Source of the DNA: a virus
Direction: 5' to 3' (one strand)
IMG/VR virus record: IMGVR_UViG_3300033571_012604
Location: 1-26,194 of that record
DNA: 26,194 nt
Position 1 is the stretch's first letter; each line of letters begins with the position of its first letter. Positions 6,914-26,194 of the stretch are shown here, one piece after another. The notes beneath the pieces are model-generated. The model was not told the origin of the DNA. It saw only the letters and a list, made by a program, of their open reading frames with translations, and did not search any database. The translations under genes and the position numbers were made by a program.

Positions 6914-7288
6914 TTATTTTTCAGAAAAATATTTTATTAAAATATGCCCACTTCTATAGTTTGTTGCCAATGGAACATCGTGGACATCACATAATCTCAA
7001 CAACATTTGAACATCTGGTTCATGTGGATGTTTATCTAATGGGTCCCTAAAGAATATAACACCATCCAATTCACCACGAGTAACCATTGCTCCAATCTCT
7101 GCGTCGCCACCCATTGGTCCTGAATTTAAAGTTATAACCTTCTCCACCCCTGCATGGATAATTCTTTTACCTGTTGTTCCCGTTGCGTATATTTCAACAT
7201 CAGGTCTATTAAAAAAATCCAATCGTTTCATAACAAAGGCTACCATATCAGCCTTTTTTCCGTCGTGTGCTATTAACGCTAATCTCAT
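6914..7288 (-). CDS. mgsA: methylglyoxal synthase
   Basis: Converts dihydroxyacetone phosphate to methylglyoxal and phosphate, a bypass of lower glycolysis that releases phosphate. The 124-aa protein is full-length for the core fold: AHD and K (residues 7-12), the phosphate-binding TGTTG (36-40), SGPMGGD with catalytic Asp 62, DPL (82-84), and HEPD with His 89 and Asp 92. These match the known active-site residues of the E. coli enzyme in order. It is the first gene of a small operon with the 105-aa and HNH genes. The product is toxic, so the phage presumably needs the phosphate, redirects carbon, or acts late. No truncation seen. Confidence 0.92.
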   Translation of the reverse strand: MRLALIAHDGKKADMVAFVMKRLDFFNRPDVEIYATGTTGKRIIHAGVEKVITLNSGPMGGDAEIGAMVTRGELDGVIFFRDPLDKHPHEPDVQMLLRLCDVHDVPLATNYRSGHILIKYFSEK

Positions 7289-7359: not shown

Positions 7360-8193
7360 TTATACAAGTTCCGATTGTTCTTGTTTCATTAGTTCATATG
7401 CTCTAGCCATTCTTGTCATTCCAATTCCTCCACCAAATCTTTGGAAAAAGTCAAGAGACAAAAATTCTTTTAATTCTGATTCAACTCTTTCCCTACCAAA
7501 AAGTTCAAATAGTTTTTCACAATATGCCCCGCCTTCAATGTTATAAAAATTGTGCCTCATCTCTTCAACATCACAACTTCTTTCTGCACTACCAATTGTT
7601 TCTTGACCATAAAGAATAACATCAACTTTATTGAAGATATTATTTCCTTTATGTTTCATATTCCAAAATGGATTTGTTCTTAACGGGAAGTTTTGAAGTG
7701 ATACTACATTACCCATTTCTTCCCACATTCTTTGTTCATGTTCATGTTCCAAGATTGACACTCCACCGTATTCTTGACAAACATCATCATAGTTGACTTT
7801 TGCAATCGCATCTGTAAAACCAAGGTGATATAATAAATCACTCTCCAATTTAATTAGTTCTTTCATTCCACCTTTTGATTCAAATTCAAACATTGGAAAA
7901 ATTAAATCGTGTCTTCCTTCAATTGGATTTTTTTCTTCTCTGTATGATGTTGAAATGCAAAACACTCCATCCCATTCAGGATTTCTTAAAAGTTCATATT
8001 CGAGCCACATCTGACCGGTCTGTGGGAGTGGCCACATTAATCCACCATATTCAAATGTTTTTACCGAATGTGGATTCTCGCATGCCGCAAGAATTGATAA
8101 TCTACTTTGTGTAGGAACTTCTTTAAAGTTTCTGTTTAGGAAGAATTCTCTCATCTTCTGTACTAGTTCGTTGTAAATTTCTGTGTTTTTCAT
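7360..8193 (-). CDS. class II aminoacyl-tRNA-synthetase-like catalytic core (Asp/Asn/Lys type, possibly AsnA-like)
   Basis: A 277-aa stand-alone catalytic domain. Class II motif 2 is at STSYREE...GRHDLIFPMFEFE (residues 81-105) and motif 3 at GGGIGMTRM (254-262), where the usual GxGxxR arginine is Arg 261. PLPQTGQMWLEYELL (55-69) matches the motif of aspartyl/asparaginyl enzymes. There is no anticodon-binding domain. Related free-standing proteins include archaeal asparagine synthetase A and the lysyl-modifying EpmA; similar proteins occur in Bacteroidetes chromosomes as synthetase-related proteins. Substrate therefore undecided. It has its own terminator and no overlap with neighbours. Confidence 0.8.
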   Translation of the reverse strand: MKNTEIYNELVQKMREFFLNRNFKEVPTQSRLSILAACENPHSVKTFEYGGLMWPLPQTGQMWLEYELLRNPEWDGVFCISTSYREEKNPIEGRHDLIFPMFEFESKGGMKELIKLESDLLYHLGFTDAIAKVNYDDVCQEYGGVSILEHEHEQRMWEEMGNVVSLQNFPLRTNPFWNMKHKGNNIFNKVDVILYGQETIGSAERSCDVEEMRHNFYNIEGGAYCEKLFELFGRERVESELKEFLSLDFFQRFGGGIGMTRMARAYELMKQEQSELV

Positions 8194-8487: not shown

Positions 8488-9711
8488 TTAAAACTTTGTC
8501 CATCCAATTGTCCAATCGACTGAATTTGTTGGAATAGCCCCCCATTGTGAATTAACAACAGATGAATTGGTTCTAAAATTTACATCCACCGGACTTGTTT
8601 GTGATGAACTAATAATTGTTCCTTGTTTTTGACATAAAGACAACATATTATCTTTTGACAATAAAGATGAACTTGTTTTAACCGTGTTCAAAGTATCTAC
8701 GCTTGAAATATAATTGTTGAACATTGTGCTCACACCTGTATTAAAATACCCTGCGGATATGTCTGATTCAATACTAAAACCTCCTTTCATATATCCATAA
8801 AATATTGAATATTGAACGTTAAATGCCGTTCCTCTTCTCCATCTCATTGCTAAATTATGATTTGCCAATGAGTTTACATTGTTTGGCCCAATTAATGTAA
8901 AATTCTGTAAATTTGGTTTTGTCAATGGAATTGCAACCGAACCAGTTCCATCATTATCACATTCAATACCATTTCCCGCATCACCCATATCAACAAATTG
9001 TGGGTCTCTTTTTGATATCGCAAATTTTATTGTTCCTGTATAACCAAAGTCAAAATCATAATCATCATCAGCGGTCCCAACCGCAATTAAATGTGAACAA
9101 TTAACATTTCCACCAAAAAATTCAAATGCATCATCATTTGCATAATATGATTCACAATAGTCAACGACAGTTCCTTTTCCTACTCCACCAAATGTAAATG
9201 CGTTTATTTCTGAACCTGGAAATGCCGCAATACCTGCGTATTCAACTCTAACATACCTCAATATTCCACTGTTATCGTTTTCATTAACTCCTCCAAAACC
9301 ACGTCCAACCCCTCCTTCAATTGTTGGGTTTGGTTTATTTGTCGGCGCATTTCCCAAAATAATCAATCCTCCCCAATCACCTGGTTTTGGTGTTGGTTGT
9401 CCTGAAGTAAAGATGATAGGATTTGTGGATGTACCATCAGCAATTATTTTTGCATTTCTTTCAATACATAATGCACCTTTTTCACTAACATCACTAATGA
9501 TTTTAGTGCCAGGTTCAATTGTTAAAGTAACACCTTCAGGGACATATACATATCCTTTTAATGTCCAAACTTTATCACTAGTTAAAGTTTTGTTTTCGGT
9601 TAATGTTCCGACAAGTATTGCATTGTCATCAACAGGTGGTTTAATTGGGTCTTTTTGACAAGATTGAAATCCCAATAATAGTGCCATTAGAAATGGAATC
9701 ATTTTTTTCAT
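8488..9711 (-). CDS. outer-membrane/surface lipoprotein, right-handed beta-helix type
   Basis: 407 aa. A lipoprotein signal (MKKMIPFLMALLLGFQSC, lipobox Cys 18) is followed by a low-complexity linker with prolines and then a long strand-rich region with glycine, asparagine and aspartate repeats typical of a beta-helix (for example DWGGLIILGN, FEFFGGNVNCSHLIAVGTAD). An Asp-rich DDDYDFDFGYTG stretch may bind calcium. Such lipoproteins occur beside TonB-dependent receptors in Bacteroidetes and are sometimes misnamed multidrug transporters. The start codon overlaps the receptor stop as ATGA, so the two are translated together and probably form one outer-membrane system. Ligand unknown. Confidence 0.8.
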   Translation of the reverse strand: MKKMIPFLMALLLGFQSCQKDPIKPPVDDNAILVGTLTENKTLTSDKVWTLKGYVYVPEGVTLTIEPGTKIISDVSEKGALCIERNAKIIADGTSTNPIIFTSGQPTPKPGDWGGLIILGNAPTNKPNPTIEGGVGRGFGGVNENDNSGILRYVRVEYAGIAAFPGSEINAFTFGGVGKGTVVDYCESYYANDDAFEFFGGNVNCSHLIAVGTADDDYDFDFGYTGTIKFAISKRDPQFVDMGDAGNGIECDNDGTGSVAIPLTKPNLQNFTLIGPNNVNSLANHNLAMRWRRGTAFNVQYSIFYGYMKGGFSIESDISAGYFNTGVSTMFNNYISSVDTLNTVKTSSSLLSKDNMLSLCQKQGTIISSSQTSPVDVNFRTNSSVVNSQWGAIPTNSVDWTIGWTKF

Positions 9712-11939
9712 AGTTTGTAATTTATTGTTAAGTTTATTGTTTTTTCGTTATTTGTGTTAATTAAAACCCTATCTTTATTATTTTGATAGAATTTTGAATT
9801 TTGTGATAATAAATCAGAAATGGATAATTTAAATGAAAATTTATTCTTTTGATATTGAAATGTCAAATCAATTACGTCTCTCGAATTTTCATAGATATCA
9901 TCATATCCTTGAAAACCTACTGATGATATTCTTTCTCCGATTCTATTATATAATATATTAATTGAATAATTTGTTTTAGTATAAAATATACCTCCGTTTA
10001 TTACATACGGTGATTGTCCTTGTAATGGTCTAACCCTTCCTTGAACATTAACTTCTGATTTAAAATAAGAAAAGTTTGAATATACGTTAAAAAACTTGTT
10101 TATTGATTTTCTTATTTCAATTTCTCCCCCATATACTATCGCCAATTTTGGATTTGAATATGTTAGGATTAAATTACTAGGTACGGAACCATTATCAACA
10201 ATTTGTTCTATCGGATTAATAAATCTTTTATAAAATGTGGAAAATGTTATTAATTCTTTATTGGACGGAAAAATTTCATATCTTAAATCCAAATTTGTTA
10301 TTTTGGTTCTAATTAAATCTTCATTTCCAACTATTTGAGCGTTTCTTATAAAATCGTAATAAGAAAAATTACTTACTTCACGAAACTCTGGTCTTGCAAC
10401 AGTTTTACTTAATGAAAATCTTATATTTGTTTTTGAATTTTTATTATAAATTAAATTAATTGACGGTAATAAATCCAAGTAATTCCTATCAATACTTACT
10501 TTTTTACCACTGAAATCTGAAGTGTTAACACTGAAAATTTGATTTTCAATTCTTATCCCATAAGATGTTACAAATTTATTGTAAATTTTATTATTTAGAA
10601 CGTATGCGGATAATAGATTTGAAAATGCGGAATACCTATCAGTATTATTTGTTATTTCATCTAAAACAAAATTTGGTTGATATCTAAACACTCTAGCGTC
10701 AAAATTCCTAAATTTATATTGTTCAAATAATCCATATTTCAATTTTTTTATTGTATCGTTATATGTTCCAGTAAATGTGTGTTCATTCATTTTACTCCAA
10801 AAACGATAAGAATCTCTCCAAATATATGAACTATCTTTATTTGATGTAATATTTTTAGCATAAGGATTTACCCTATAATCAGGTTGATTTCTTCTTAATA
10901 ATGTATAACCTATGTTAATTTTCGGTAATCCGACTTGTGACATTATAATTAATTTTTGATTATGATTTGAACTACTTGTGGTTATAATTTGCTCATTATC
11001 GTAATTAATCCCTGTTCGGTTTGTTATTAAATTTTCGTTTAAAAAATTGATGTTGTTTTTTATGTCGACTTTTTTTATCCTGAAATTAGCTATTGACCCT
11101 ATGTTTAGGTTTTGTATATAAGTTAAATCATTATAATTATACATAAGGTCATCTTCACTCATATATTCTCTTCTCTGAACCTTGGTTATATTATTAGACT
11201 TTCTAATTGTTAGATTTGTAAAATATGAAAATTTCTTATCCCCTTTACCGAAGTTATAAACAAGAGAAGTGTTTGGTATGTTAAATGTTTGATTTAAAAT
11301 GTAACCACCATTTATTTTATTTGACTCTATTTGTTTTTTTTCAAAAGATAATGCCCTAAATTCTTTAGTTGTTGGAAATGTTTTTGGTAATATATCAACC
11401 CCTATTTTCCAAGAATTATTAAAAGTCGATAAACTTCCATAACTTAAACCAACATCAATACTTTTTACTTTGGTGTCTGAAGTTTTTGTTGTTATTTTTA
11501 TAATACCTCCTGAAAAATCACCAGGTAATTCTGATGAAGATGTCTTATACACAATTAAATTATCAATTGCGTTAGATGGTATTAAATCAAATGAAAATGC
11601 CTTTCTATCAGGTTCTGTTGAACCTATTAATACATTATTTACCATTACAGAATTATACCTATCTGATAATCCTCTAACGACAACAAATTTATCATTTTGT
11701 ATTGATGTTCCTCCAACTCTTTTTAAAACATCACTGATTGTTCTATCAGGAGTTTTTTTAATTGACTCATAAGAGACAACATCTAATACTGTGACACTTT
11801 TTCTTTGTAAATTAATTACAGAAGAAATTGTTTCTTTTTTAATTGAGGATTTAACTGTAACTGTAGTTAAATCTTGAGCCTTTGTAGAATCACCTGGACC
11901 TGAAAAAAGGGTCAAATAGATGGATAATAATAAATTCAT
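9708..11939 (-). CDS. TonB-dependent outer-membrane receptor
   Basis: 743 aa. A signal peptide (about 1-21) leads to a TonB-box-like segment (DLTTVTVKS), then the plug domain (about 45-150) with the typical strings RTISDVLKRVGG, VVRGLSDRYNSVMVNN, EPDRKAFSFDLIPS and ELPGDFSGGIIKITTK. The rest (about 155-743) is strand-rich with alternating aromatic residues, a 22-stranded barrel by family. It lacks the N-terminal carboxypeptidase-like domain of SusC proteins. The last residues are INYKL rather than ending in an aromatic. Family role: energy-dependent uptake of a bound substrate through the outer membrane. Coupled by ATGA to the lipoprotein. A phage location is unusual. Confidence 0.9.
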   Translation of the reverse strand: MNLLLSIYLTLFSGPGDSTKAQDLTTVTVKSSIKKETISSVINLQRKSVTVLDVVSYESIKKTPDRTISDVLKRVGGTSIQNDKFVVVRGLSDRYNSVMVNNVLIGSTEPDRKAFSFDLIPSNAIDNLIVYKTSSSELPGDFSGGIIKITTKTSDTKVKSIDVGLSYGSLSTFNNSWKIGVDILPKTFPTTKEFRALSFEKKQIESNKINGGYILNQTFNIPNTSLVYNFGKGDKKFSYFTNLTIRKSNNITKVQRREYMSEDDLMYNYNDLTYIQNLNIGSIANFRIKKVDIKNNINFLNENLITNRTGINYDNEQIITTSSSNHNQKLIIMSQVGLPKINIGYTLLRRNQPDYRVNPYAKNITSNKDSSYIWRDSYRFWSKMNEHTFTGTYNDTIKKLKYGLFEQYKFRNFDARVFRYQPNFVLDEITNNTDRYSAFSNLLSAYVLNNKIYNKFVTSYGIRIENQIFSVNTSDFSGKKVSIDRNYLDLLPSINLIYNKNSKTNIRFSLSKTVARPEFREVSNFSYYDFIRNAQIVGNEDLIRTKITNLDLRYEIFPSNKELITFSTFYKRFINPIEQIVDNGSVPSNLILTYSNPKLAIVYGGEIEIRKSINKFFNVYSNFSYFKSEVNVQGRVRPLQGQSPYVINGGIFYTKTNYSINILYNRIGERISSVGFQGYDDIYENSRDVIDLTFQYQKNKFSFKLSISDLLSQNSKFYQNNKDRVLINTNNEKTINLTINYKL

Positions 11940-14480: not shown

Positions 14481-14645
14481 TTAATTCTTTTTTTTATTAT
14501 CAATATCTTCAGCTTTTTTATTGTTAGTCTTTTTAATTTTGTGCGTTTTTCCAAAATTAATTTCGTCAATACCAAACTTATGCATAAAGTCATTCAATTC
14601 TTCCAACATCTTGTTTTCGATTTCTTCTTTAGTTAGTTTTTTCAT
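14481..14645 (-). CDS. small basic hypothetical protein (54 aa)
   Basis: From ATG 14645 to TAA 14481. Begins MKKLTKEEIENKMLEEL, helical, and ends in a run of lysines and asparagines. It overlaps the end of the macro-domain gene by 17 nt in another frame and is probably in the same transcript. Function unknown. Confidence 0.55.
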   Translation of the reverse strand: MKKLTKEEIENKMLEELNDFMHKFGIDEINFGKTHKIKKTNNKKAEDIDNKKKN

Positions 14646-15102
14646 ATTCCACAATATATATATCGTATTCGTTTAGTTCGTCTTTGATTGTCTTTTCGAT
14701 TAATTCTTTAGATTCAAATCCACCTAGCCCACAACCAATATATGGAAATCCAATCCTGATTTTCACATCACTATGGGAATTAGGTAAATCATTTTTCATA
14801 ACTTTTAATGCGGATTTAAATGAAGCGTAGTCGAAATATTTACCCGGTCTAACTTGTGTATACAAATTATAAATCCGTTTATCGTCATCAACATGTGTAA
14901 CAGAAAATGTCCCCATTTGTTCTGCAGGTTCATCAAACTTTGATTTATGTTCGATGTCAATCTTTGACGCTTGTGGATATCTTTCTGCAATTTGTTTCGC
15001 AACTCCCGCCCCCATAATTCCCATACAATTACAACCGTGAGCAATGATATCGAAAAATCCCATATCAAACAGTTTAACCAAGTCACCTTTTTTTCTTATC
15101 AT
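14629..15102 (-). CDS. macro-domain protein (ADP-ribose-phosphate hydrolase type)
   Basis: 157 aa. The ADP-ribose binding motifs are clear: GDL at residues 6-8, AHGCNCMGIMGAGVAKQI (21-38), and the second loop IGCGLGGFE (about 122-130). These match the Poa1p/ALC1-like macro proteins that remove the phosphate from ADP-ribose-1''-phosphate or hydrolyse ADP-ribosyl esters. In phages such proteins may process ADP-ribose products of RNA repair or reverse ADP-ribosylation-based defence. It lies in the same run of genes as the RNA ligase, with one secreted-protein gene between them. Confidence 0.88.
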   Translation of the reverse strand: MIRKKGDLVKLFDMGFFDIIAHGCNCMGIMGAGVAKQIAERYPQASKIDIEHKSKFDEPAEQMGTFSVTHVDDDKRIYNLYTQVRPGKYFDYASFKSALKVMKNDLPNSHSDVKIRIGFPYIGCGLGGFESKELIEKTIKDELNEYDIYIVEYEKTN

Positions 15103-15501: not shown

Positions 15502-16584
15502 TTACTTTTCGTTCAACAAAAATTGGTTTGAAATTGATTTGAATGAAATTGTTCCATCCATTGACCTAACAACCACGCCTTCACGTTCTGTATTTGGATT
15601 CAACGCTGATTTACCTTCAGCATATTTCAACATATCTTCAACAGTATTAGGTAACATAAATGGAGTTTCCAAGATTGGAACATGTTCCAAGTTTAACATA
15701 TTCATAATCTCAGTGAATTGATTTATCGAAACTCTTTGGTGTTTCTCAATATCAAAGACATTAAAGAACTTTACGGTTTGTCCTTTAATTTTGTACGGGT
15801 TCCCTTGGATTCCTTCTCCAATAAGTTCTCCTTGGAAACAAATGTTTCTATTCAAAGACTTCATTTTATTTTCCAAATCAAGTTCACGAGCCACTTTCCA
15901 AAAAGTGTTTCCTTCAGTTTCCAACAATTCAAGGTTTCTTGAACATACACCAAAAACCCCATCATTAATGTAAAAAGTCGCTGATGAACCATCCAATTTT
16001 TCTGTTACGTAAAACTGATGTTTAGATTGGAATATCCATTCACCATATTCTTTTACCAAATTTTGAACACGTTCTTCATCCGTCTTGCTAAGGAATGATG
16101 GAAACGCTCCTTTTACTTTACCAGCAAGTTCTGCGGGAATTGGTGGTTCATATTTTACAATTCCCAAGTATTCAGTCACATCAACACCCTCTTCGATTAC
16201 CAAAGCGTCATCATATGGACCAACTTGTAATTGAAAACCCCAAGGTTGTTGTGAATACCCAATTTTCATTTCATCTTCACCTTCCAAAATTGAAATCGGT
16301 AAAACCAACCCTTGTGACAATTGGTTTCTAAGTCGAATTGTTCTCAAACGAAATCCTTCTTTATCACCCATCCTTTTGTATGAAGACTTCCTCAAAAATT
16401 CAAATTCCTCTCGAATTGGTAGAAACGAATCAATTTCACAATAAACACAAAAATCTCCGACCTTGTATTCACCTTTTTTGGTTACAACGCTCCAACCATC
16501 AACAATGACCAATTCGATTGCATCTGCATTTTCAATTGGTCTTACATCACTAATTTTTCTAATACTTGCAAGTTTTCTTTCCAT
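15502..16584 (-). CDS. RNA ligase, DRB0094/Rnl5-like (OB fold plus nucleotidyltransferase)
   Basis: 360 aa, near the length of the Deinococcus enzyme. An N-terminal OB-type region (about 1-140) precedes the nucleotidyltransferase core: motif I EKLDGSS with the adenylated Lys 196, motif III QGELIG (251-256), motif IV EREGVVVR (333-340), motif V SFKSIS (347-352). The family seals 5'-phosphate/3'-OH nicks in RNA, using ATP. Likely roles are repair of RNAs cut by host anticodon nucleases or other RNA joining. It follows the small lipoprotein gene by 7 nt. Very secure at family level. Confidence 0.92.
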   Translation of the reverse strand: MERKLASIRKISDVRPIENADAIELVIVDGWSVVTKKGEYKVGDFCVYCEIDSFLPIREEFEFLRKSSYKRMGDKEGFRLRTIRLRNQLSQGLVLPISILEGEDEMKIGYSQQPWGFQLQVGPYDDALVIEEGVDVTEYLGIVKYEPPIPAELAGKVKGAFPSFLSKTDEERVQNLVKEYGEWIFQSKHQFYVTEKLDGSSATFYINDGVFGVCSRNLELLETEGNTFWKVARELDLENKMKSLNRNICFQGELIGEGIQGNPYKIKGQTVKFFNVFDIEKHQRVSINQFTEIMNMLNLEHVPILETPFMLPNTVEDMLKYAEGKSALNPNTEREGVVVRSMDGTISFKSISNQFLLNEK

Positions 16585-16761: not shown

Positions 16762-16793
16762 CAAAGATATTGAATATTTTTTAAATATCAAAA
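16762..16793 (-). promoter_or_regulatory. promoter TTTTG-19 bp-TATCTTTG
   Basis: TTTTG at 16793-16789 and TATCTTTG at 16769-16762, 19 bp apart, a strong match to the Bacteroidetes consensus. It overlaps the 3' end of the purA-like gene and starts the RNA ligase operon, with almost no leader. Confidence 0.75.
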
Positions 16794-17797
16794 GGAGATT
16801 GACTAAATGTTATGTTTGTAACTGTTGGACAACTCTGAAAAATTTTATCTTCAATATCTAATTTGAATTGTTTTGTGTCCTTAACTTCCAGTAATTCGTT
16901 GTTGTAGTAATAACATAAACATCCTGCGGTTTCCAAAACATCTAATTTATTGAATATCAAATCAGAAACTCCGTTTATGTTACAAGCTTTAATAATGTCG
17001 TTAACATTCAACCAATCTACTTGTCTTTTTCTTCCTGTTGTTGCACCAAACTCTTGTCCTATTTCTCTTATTCTTTCAAATAGTGGGTTATCACCTTCAA
17101 AGTTTTTTGCCCCCACATATGTTCTGTATGCCTTTGCAATACCATACACACTTCTGATTTTTTGTGGTGGAACACCATTCATAATTGCAGAACCTACAGT
17201 ACAATGTGAAGATGTAACGTAAGGATAATCTCCCCAATCGATATCAAGTTCAAAACCTTGGGCTCCTTCAAAAAGTATTTTTGCATTTTTTACCTCATCG
17301 TTATTATACAATTCATCATAAATGTCAATGACCATTGGTTTAATAAAATCCACATCTTCGGCTCTTATACCGTTTCGTCCATATTTGTCTCTATAACAAG
17401 GTCCATTACCAGTTTTGGTTGTACCAATTTTTGTGTCCTTGGAATCTTCTTCAATATGTTTGTCCGTTATAATATGAACTCTTTTATCAATAAAGAGATT
17501 ACCATATACCTTAACAGAATTACTTTCTAATTCATTTATCTCTTTAACTAATTTATCGAGATTAACAACACAACCAGGGCCAATGATTGACTTGATACCA
17601 TAAAAAACCCCAATTGGGATAAAGTGGGTTACAAATTTTTTTCCGTTATGGTAAACCGTGTGTCCAGCATTTCCACCACCATTATACCTTATAATGTGTG
17701 TATAACGATTTGGTTTTTTCGCCAAAGCATGTGCCACTTTACCTTTACCTGTGTCACCAGCTTGTAGGTCAACAATTACATCCGCGCAATATACCAT
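16781..17797 (-). CDS. purA: adenylosuccinate synthetase-like enzyme, short form (PurA/PurZ family)
   Basis: 338 aa, the short archaeal/phage length rather than the bacterial 430. The N-terminal GTP/IMP loop is VDLQAGDTGKGK (residues 9-20): the catalytic Asp is kept (Asp 15) but the usual following Glu is Thr and the usual QWG is QAG. Other sites: NAGHT with His 46, GTTKTGNGP (125-133), EGAQG (177-181), YPYVTSS (191-197), GATTGRKR with the aspartate-binding arginines (251-258), NKLDVL (283-288). PurA makes adenylosuccinate from IMP and aspartate; phage PurZ uses dGMP for 2-aminoadenine. The kept Asp points to PurA activity, the neighbouring residues to PurZ-like enzymes. It follows the 86-aa gene by 3 nt. 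Confidence 0.85.
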   Translation of the reverse strand: MVYCADVIVDLQAGDTGKGKVAHALAKKPNRYTHIIRYNGGGNAGHTVYHNGKKFVTHFIPIGVFYGIKSIIGPGCVVNLDKLVKEINELESNSVKVYGNLFIDKRVHIITDKHIEEDSKDTKIGTTKTGNGPCYRDKYGRNGIRAEDVDFIKPMVIDIYDELYNNDEVKNAKILFEGAQGFELDIDWGDYPYVTSSHCTVGSAIMNGVPPQKIRSVYGIAKAYRTYVGAKNFEGDNPLFERIREIGQEFGATTGRKRQVDWLNVNDIIKACNINGVSDLIFNKLDVLETAGCLCYYYNNELLEVKDTKQFKLDIEDKIFQSCPTVTNITFSQSPFDI

Positions 17798-25024: not shown

Positions 25025-25501
25025 TTAAATAAGGATATTATTATCTGATATGAATTTTTCAAGACCTTCTATGTTAATATCTAAAGTTTTATATGCTTGG
25101 TAATTTAAAATGTTATGTTCTTTAGCATATGTCGTTACTTTAATATGTTCTTCTCTTGTTATTGATGCTGTTGATGCAATTGCAATAAGTAATTGAATAA
25201 ACTCTTCCAATTCCATATTTGGATTACATTCAAGTTTGTTAAAAATCAATCTCATAGCCTTTGTTCTTTGAATAAAGTGGTCCTCAACAGGTTTTCCCCC
25301 ACTTGATATTAAATTCTTACTTTTCAACCCCGTTTTAAACATTTTGTTGTTTGATATGTCAAACAATGGATTTCGGTTTCTTGATAGAAATAATTTTAAC
25401 AGACCATCATTATCCTTAACTTCGGTATATCTACCGACCAACGCTTTAAAATCTTTTAAAGTTTCAGATATTTTTTCTTCTATTGTAAATTTTGTCGCCA
25501 T
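25025..25501 (-). CDS. hypothetical 158-aa helical protein
   Basis: Starts MATKFTIEEKISETLKDFKA; helical, with a basic middle (NKMFKTGLKSKNLISSGGKP, QRTKAMRLIFNKL) and an acidic helical end. No motif recognised. It lies just downstream, in the reading direction, of the structured RNA's terminator. Function unknown. Confidence 0.65.
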   Translation of the reverse strand: MATKFTIEEKISETLKDFKALVGRYTEVKDNDGLLKLFLSRNRNPLFDISNNKMFKTGLKSKNLISSGGKPVEDHFIQRTKAMRLIFNKLECNPNMELEEFIQLLIAIASTASITREEHIKVTTYAKEHNILNYQAYKTLDINIEGLEKFISDNNILI

Positions 25502-25542
25502 TATGGTTTAAAATATAATAAAAATATTTGGTTTTATCAAAT

Positions 25543-25576
25543 AAAAAAACCCACGAAATTGGTTTATCGTGGGTTT
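25543..25576 (-). terminator. strong terminator at the 3' end of the structured RNA
   Basis: AAACCCACGA (25547-25556) pairs with TCGTGGGTTT (25567-25576), then a run of T on the minus strand. It fixes the RNA's direction and 3' end. Confidence 0.9.
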
Positions 25577-26194
25577 AAACACTTGTCGTGTCGACCAAGA
25601 GATACTATCTCAAGGGATGTTGGCTAAAACGCTGAGACTATACGTTTGTTTAACCCGTCTTTCGTAGAGATTATACCGACTAAGGTTTCCTCTCTTGTCC
25701 ACAAATGTTGCCATCTGTATCGAGTCATCACCGATTGTTTACGTCAATCACTCGTTTCGGTTAAACCTACTCAACTGTTACTTATCTCTATGGAATCTTG
25801 CGGACTCCCTAAACCCGTGCCCAGGTACTAGGACTTTCTCAGTTAAAACCGAAGGACTTGGGGTCCTACCGATTTCCTCGTTAGCTGTGGCTCAAGGAAT
25901 TAGGTGACTTTCAGTTTAACCGCTCAGAGACTTTTCCTTTTCTGTAGTTTTATTTTTTCATAAATAAATCAACATAGTGAGTGTTATGAAAGTTGAGCTC
26001 TGAGGTGGATAGCTTCTCTTTTGAAGAAGTAAATACCACTCAACTTTCTGTAATCCGCCAAGACTACGGTTCATCTCGATATCGGTAGGTTACCCTTTGG
26101 ATACCTGTGAAGAACTGGTGACCTAGCCCTACATCAGATTGGCGTCTGAGTCGAACCATTCCCTTTACCTTTTCCTGTTGGTGTCTCCACCTCA
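25545..26194 (-). ncRNA. large structured non-coding RNA (5' end outside window)
   Basis: At least 640 nt, visibly richer in G and C than its surroundings and without a believable reading frame on either strand. Many strong helices can be seen: 25988-25997 with 26039-26048 (10 pairs), 25721-25725 with 25750-25754 enclosing 25733-25737 with 25745-25749, and 25853-25857 with 25863-25867. The minus-strand terminator at 25543-25576 closes it. Size, structure and phage setting resemble the ornate large RNAs GOLLD and ROOL, but I cannot match a consensus by eye. It is not rRNA, tmRNA or RNase P RNA as far as I can tell. Confidence 0.75.

What the first reader, a model, noticed from the sequence alone, without database searches (positions are those of the whole stretch)
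25545..26194. A very long, highly structured RNA gene in a phage, possibly of the GOLLD/ROOL kind or new
The sequence shows a GC-richer, ORF-free stretch of at least 640 nt with many nested helices, including a 10-pair stem, and a strong terminator that fixes the minus strand. It extends past the window, so the full RNA is longer. Large ornate RNAs of this size are known from phages (GOLLD, ROOL), where they occur near tRNA genes and are made in large amounts. The identity here is inferred; it could be a new class.
Basis: partly seen in the sequence, partly recalled or inferred. Interest (0 to 1): 0.75.

Follow-up and report, generated by a model that had tools for sequence, protein, structure and literature searches.

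The report
GOLLD RNA in a Bacteroidota phage
The odd stretch at the end of this phage fragment is a GOLLD RNA, a very large phage RNA that in a relative builds a hollow cage of 14 copies; it is a new member of a known class, in a phage that probably infects Bacteroidota.

Summary
On the minus strand, 25629-26048 matches the whole Rfam GOLLD model (RF02032, positions 1-416, 311.8 bits, E 9e-89). It is the only Rfam match in the window. The window stops 146 nt into the upstream 5' domain, so roughly 290-320 nt are missing, judged from two close relatives (L002 and the phage of L072). A 68-sequence alignment of phage GOLLDs shows strong covariation. This includes the J13/15-L20 contact reported to lie between subunits of the GOLLD cage: Rfam consensus GC/GC, here GG/CC, with 67-68 of 68 sequences paired. 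So cage formation looks conserved here; oligomerisation, expression and function were not tested. New details: in 47 of 63 relatives a Bacteroidota-type promoter (TTG-N18-21-TAnnTTTG) lies 430-620 nt upstream of the 3' domain (shuffles 0.4), so many environmental GOLLDs probably belong to phages of Bacteroidota. Phage tRNAs flank many GOLLDs in the same sense. The window's lineage has none there and ends in its own terminator, whereas some other lineages carry a tRNA or a shortened tRNA-like hairpin just after the RNA. Verdict: a well-supported new member of a known class, in a divergent lineage; not a new class.

The parts
25629..26048 (-). GOLLD 3' domain (complete RF02032 model 1-416)
   Evidence: cmscan 311.8 bits, E 9.2e-89; covariation in 68 homologues
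26049..26194 (-). 3' part of the GOLLD 5' (cap) domain, cut off by the window end
   Evidence: 86-88% identical to L072 and L002 just upstream of their 3' domains; three-sequence consensus fold with 6 of 44 pairs changed on both sides
26180..26191 (-). GNRA hairpin GGUG-GAGA-CACC of the 5' domain
   Evidence: stem of 4 plus GNRA loop found at the matching place in about 60 of 68 homologues, with varied stem sequences
25938..25987 (-). 50-nt A/U-rich variable linker; the equivalent linker lies disordered inside the cage of env-38
   Evidence: position between P13 and J13/15; variable length and sequence in homologues; cage placement from PMC12286853
25936..25937 (-). J13/15 half of the inter-subunit kissing contact (B7): GG
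   Evidence: pairs with 25860-25861 in 67-68 of 68 sequences, by GC, CG, AU and UA pairs
25860..25861 (-). L20 half of the B7 contact: CC
25753..25755 (-). J17/22 strand (ACG) of the L22 pseudoknot
   Evidence: pairs with 25741-25743; central pair GC 37, AU 22, CG 5, UA 3, GU 1 of 68
25741..25743 (-). L22 strand (CGU) of the pseudoknot
25819..25820 (-). self-complementary GC in loop L21a (self-kissing B8 in env-38)
   Evidence: alignment columns; homologues carry GC or CG, as described in PMC12286853
25595..25616 (-). extra hairpin between the 3' domain and the terminator
   Evidence: similar stem-loops with different sequences at the same place in L072 and L002, read by eye
25541..25576 (-). 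intrinsic terminator (10-pair stem and T-run)
   Evidence: sequence; L002 and L072 have different terminator sequences at the same place
25025..25501 (-). next downstream ORF (158 aa, unknown); a neighbour, not part of the RNA
   Evidence: no Pfam or PHROG match; no relative found in viral contigs

Best explanation
It is a GOLLD RNA gene of a phage of Bacteroidota. Shown here: the 3' domain belongs to the family and its helices, its pseudoknot and the contact known to join subunits are kept by paired changes; close relatives have a Bacteroidota-type promoter upstream, and the window's copy ends at its own terminator. Inferred: the phage makes a stand-alone RNA of about 0.93-0.96 kb using the host's main sigma factor; copies assemble without protein into a closed cage like the 14-mer of GOLLD env-38, the 5' domains forming the caps, the 3' domains the ring, with the A/U-rich linker inside. 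Least certain (about 25%): the cage serves late in infection as a container or decoy that holds RNA or ribosomal parts. Because this lineage has no tRNA in the linker or next to the gene, any cargo would have to come in trans.
For: Rfam GOLLD full length, 311.8 bits, also at 298-306 bits in the two closest relatives. Covariation in 68 sequences: 1011 cells changed on both sides against 334 in shuffles, and pairing of 79.7% against 37-53% when partners are slid. B7: G-C 65 and U-A 3; C-G 39, G-C 27, A-U 1 and one unpaired. Promoter at 430-620 nt upstream in 47 of 63 loci against 0.4 in shuffles, maximum 3; same promoter in L002 and in the phage of L072, where its boxes are kept while the spacer differs. 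TAnnTTTG is the sigma-A -7 box of flavobacteria (PMC9723704). Cage architecture from PMC12286853.
Against: No expression data and no oligomerisation test for this sequence. The 5' domain, which makes most subunit contacts in env-38, is largely outside the window, and its arrangement differs from that of most relatives (GNRA hairpin 143 nt rather than mostly 203-225 nt before the 3' domain). The promoter itself lies outside the window. The cargo or decoy role rests on proposals in PMC12286853; in Lactobacillus brevis GOLLD was dispensable for phage production (PMC7567579).
Confidence: 0.85

Rival explanations
1. A GOLLD member whose 5' domain has diverged so far that it makes a different assembly (other copy number, open ring or monomer) rather than the env-38 14-mer.
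For: The window, L002 and L072 form a divergent group: the window is 85-91% identical to the other two but about 53% (median) to the other GOLLDs. The spacing within the 5' domain differs by about 60 nt from most others.
Against: The ring-forming 3' domain and its B7 contact are fully kept; total 5' domain length is similar (promoter 437-473 nt upstream).
Confidence: 0.2
2. A new class of large structured RNA unrelated to GOLLD.
For: blastn finds nothing in annotated phages.
Against: Full-length GOLLD match at twice the gathering score, and alignment with 67 other GOLLDs.
Confidence: 0.01
3. A decayed or inactive GOLLD remnant.
For: The window copy is truncated by the contig end and no transcript is known.
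Against: The window keeps nearly all model pairs and both pseudoknots with compensatory changes relative to the consensus; terminator intact.
Confidence: 0.03

Closest known systems
GOLLD RNA (Rfam RF02032; env-38 structure, PMC12286853)
   Same: Complete 3' domain, L22 pseudoknot, J13/15-L20 contact, L21a GC loop, A/U-rich linker, separate 5' domain, phage origin
   Different: Divergent branch; different spacing in the 5' domain; no tRNA nearby; own terminator; Bacteroidota-type promoter in close relatives
ROOL RNA
   Same: Large phage RNA that forms an RNA-only cage (octamer), often near tRNAs
   Different: Unrelated sequence and structure; no Rfam ROOL match in the window
Mycobacterial GOLLD in tRNA arrays (PMC6582537)
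   Same: Same family
   Different: There the gene lies inside a 32-tRNA cluster with a pseudo-tRNA inside it; here no tRNA

Membership tests
GOLLD (RF02032) | Score above the curated threshold over the whole conserved 3' domain | tested here: met
   311.8 bits against 150, model 1-416, not truncated
GOLLD (RF02032) | Covarying helices in homologues | tested here: met
   some helices (7, 10-13) pair poorly, which I attribute to the sequence-only alignment misplacing them
GOLLD (RF02032) | L20-J13/15 kissing contact (B7) | tested here: met
   67-68 of 68 paired with four pair types; the exact nucleotides were assigned here by covariation from the paper's description
GOLLD (RF02032) | L22-J17/22 pseudoknot | tested here: met
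   Two pairs intact in 68 of 68, third in 57 of 68
GOLLD (RF02032) | Self-complementary L21a (B8) and L21b (B9) loops | tested here: inconclusive
   L21a keeps GC; L21b reads CCGCA but its alignment to env-38 was not checked
GOLLD (RF02032) | 5' domain of about 400-500 nt | tested here: inconclusive
   Only 146 nt in the window; the promoter lies 473 nt (L002) and 437 nt (phage of L072) upstream of the 3' domain in relatives
GOLLD (RF02032) | Located near tRNA genes (common, not required) | tested here: not met
   No tRNA in the window or near the L002/L072 GOLLD; 38 of 68 GOLLD loci do have one within 1.5 kb
GOLLD (RF02032) | Forms a homo-14-mer; expressed during lysis | not testable with these tools
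   Needs experiments
ROOL | Rfam ROOL covariance model match | tested here: not met
   One search lists GOLLD only

The most novel reading that the evidence does not exclude
GOLLD 3' ends are made by cutting at a tRNA or a shortened tRNA-like hairpin (acceptor plus T arm) placed 4-17 nt downstream, probably by RNase P as in the eukaryotic MALAT1-mascRNA case (recalled, not looked up); the window's lineage has a terminator in that place instead, freeing the cage RNA from tRNA arrays.
Probability: 0.3. Interest if true: 0.6.

Novelty: new member of a known kind. Interest (0 to 1): 0.4.

Why it matters
RNA-only cages are a recent discovery and their function is open. This adds a divergent, tRNA-free lineage and, through promoters, links many environmental GOLLDs to Bacteroidota hosts, where culturable phages could be sought. 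The compensatory change in a contact between subunits supports, from independent sequences, that the cage rather than the single RNA is what selection keeps.

Tried and rejected
blastn of the RNA, and of the L003 copy, against 50,697 annotated phages: no match, so relatives were found by patterns from conserved loops. Relatives of the downstream 158-aa protein: none. The genome contigs pattern scan mostly gave chance hits; one real fragment at a contig edge, L184 in a Bacteroidetes MAG, found by the profile search but below Rfam's threshold, being only 77 positions long. L004-L008 matched a pattern but are not GOLLD. Flavobacterium phage immuto, the nearest annotated phage by one protein, has no GOLLD. 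A covariance model of the full domain was not attempted because it would exceed the size and time limits. No tRNA-like hairpin was found after the RNA in the window clade. Morgado 2020 on mycobacterial GOLLD is not held, so its content was not used.

Full report
Observation. The stretch 25545-26194 (minus strand) is GC-richer than its surroundings (0.41-0.43 against 0.21-0.31), has no credible ORF, folds far better than shuffled sequence (z = -5.1) and ends in a 10-pair stem with a T-run.

Identity. Rfam gives one match in the whole window: GOLLD, RF02032, complete model 1-416, at 25629-26048 minus, 311.8 bits against a gathering score of 150. The upstream 146 nt (26049-26194) belong to the less conserved 5' domain. 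They align at 86-88% with L002 and L072, two relatives with GOLLD at 306 and 298 bits. L002 shares the window's neighbouring genes as read from the ORF lists (RNA ligase, glycosyl transferase, phosphoesterase, phrog_3704-type protein). These phages show what the window lacks: their promoters lie 473 and 437 nt upstream of the 3' domain, so about 290-320 nt of the window's RNA are outside. The inferred RNA length is about 0.93-0.96 kb including the tail.

Comparative test. Patterns from conserved loops and a profile search gave about 105 GOLLD loci in viral contigs; 68 distinct 3' domains were aligned. With the Rfam structure of the window plus two tertiary contacts, 79.7% of cells pair against 64.4% in shuffles and 37-53% with slid partners, and 1011 cells are changed on both sides against 334. 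The shuffle control does not keep relatedness, so the slid control is the better yardstick. Poorly paired helices (7, 10-13) probably reflect the sequence-only alignment. The L22-J17/22 pseudoknot has five pair types at its central pair and no exception. The J13/15-L20 contact, shown by cryo-EM in env-38 to join different subunits (PMC12286853), pairs in 68 and 67 of 68 sequences by G-C/U-A and C-G/G-C/A-U; the window has GG/CC where the Rfam consensus has GC/GC. I located the exact nucleotides by covariation; the paper gives only the loop names. In the 5' domain a hairpin with a GNRA loop is found in about 60 of 68 members with changing stem sequence, including the window (26180-26191). Whether it is L11a of the paper was not tested.

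Host and expression. In 47 of 63 loci with enough upstream sequence a TTG-N18-21-TAnnTTTG promoter lies 430-620 nt upstream of the 3' domain; dinucleotide shuffles give 0.4. TAnnTTTG is the -7 box of the main sigma factor in flavobacteria (PMC9723704). In L002 and the phage of L072 both boxes are identical while the spacer is not. With the TonB-dependent receptor in the window and a homologue of one protein in Flavobacterium phages, though also in cyanophages and pelagiphages, this points to Bacteroidota hosts. Some groups (for example L010, L013, L040, L053) lack this promoter and may differ.

tRNA context. In 38 of 68 loci a tRNA lies within 1.5 kb, and every tRNA counted in the flanks is in the same sense; the density peaks at about 2 per kb 500-1000 nt downstream. 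The window, L002 and L072 have none there. In about a third of the loci a tRNA or a shortened tRNA-like hairpin starts 4-17 nt after the GOLLD 3' end. The automatic search finds 21 of 67 loci against 2.8 in shuffles, so a few of the 21 are chance; the form with a TTC T-loop is seen in 10 loci against 0.07 in shuffles and 0 of 160 control stretches. Four short ones fold as acceptor plus T arm (with only moderate z-scores of -1.0 to -2.4). Terminators take this place in the window, L002, L072 and many others. That tRNAs or pseudo-tRNAs occur in or near GOLLD is already reported (PMC12286853; PMC6582537); I found no statement about 3'-end formation in the papers I could search.

Mechanism. Shown: family membership, conserved secondary and tertiary contacts, terminator, promoter in relatives. 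Inferred from env-38: assembly into a 14-mer cage. Speculative (about 25%): a late container or decoy for RNA or ribosomal parts, with cargo in trans because this lineage carries no tRNA in the linker (50 nt, A/U-rich) or nearby.

Verdict. Right observation, right interpretation, known class. The member is divergent (about 53% median identity to the others) but not a new kind.

Noticed in passing
L096, L108, L116, L019, L028, L053, L121, L010, L122, L030: 4-17 nt after the GOLLD 3' end: Shortened tRNA-like hairpins (acceptor plus T arm, no D or anticodon arm). L103, a related GOLLD of the same branch as L122/L030, has a full tRNA with the same acceptor stem, suggesting decay of a tRNA to a processing signal.
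   Followed up: partly
G003 (phage of L072) 9869-9980, 10185-10307, 11640-11723: tRNA-family matches of 84-123 bases, two of them far longer than the 71-position model, as if the tRNAs carried insertions.
   Followed up: no
window 16781-17797 (-): Adenylosuccinate synthetase family, PHROG labelled PurZ-like (2-aminoadenine genome pathway); the motif GDTGKGK keeps the Asp of PurA, so PurA or PurZ0 type is possible (motif reading from memory).
   Followed up: partly
window 9708-11939 and 8488-9711 (-): TonB-dependent receptor and a Bacteroidota-type lipoprotein side by side in a phage contig, unusual cargo with no PHROG match.
   Followed up: partly
window 6914-7288 and 7360-8193 (-): Methylglyoxal-synthase-like domain and a class II tRNA-synthetase-core protein (possibly AsnA-like).
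   Followed up: partly
window 15502-16584, 771-1514, 14629-15102 (-): RNA ligase, tRNA nucleotidyltransferase-like protein and macro-domain phosphatase: an RNA repair set in a fragment that has no tRNA genes.
   Followed up: partly
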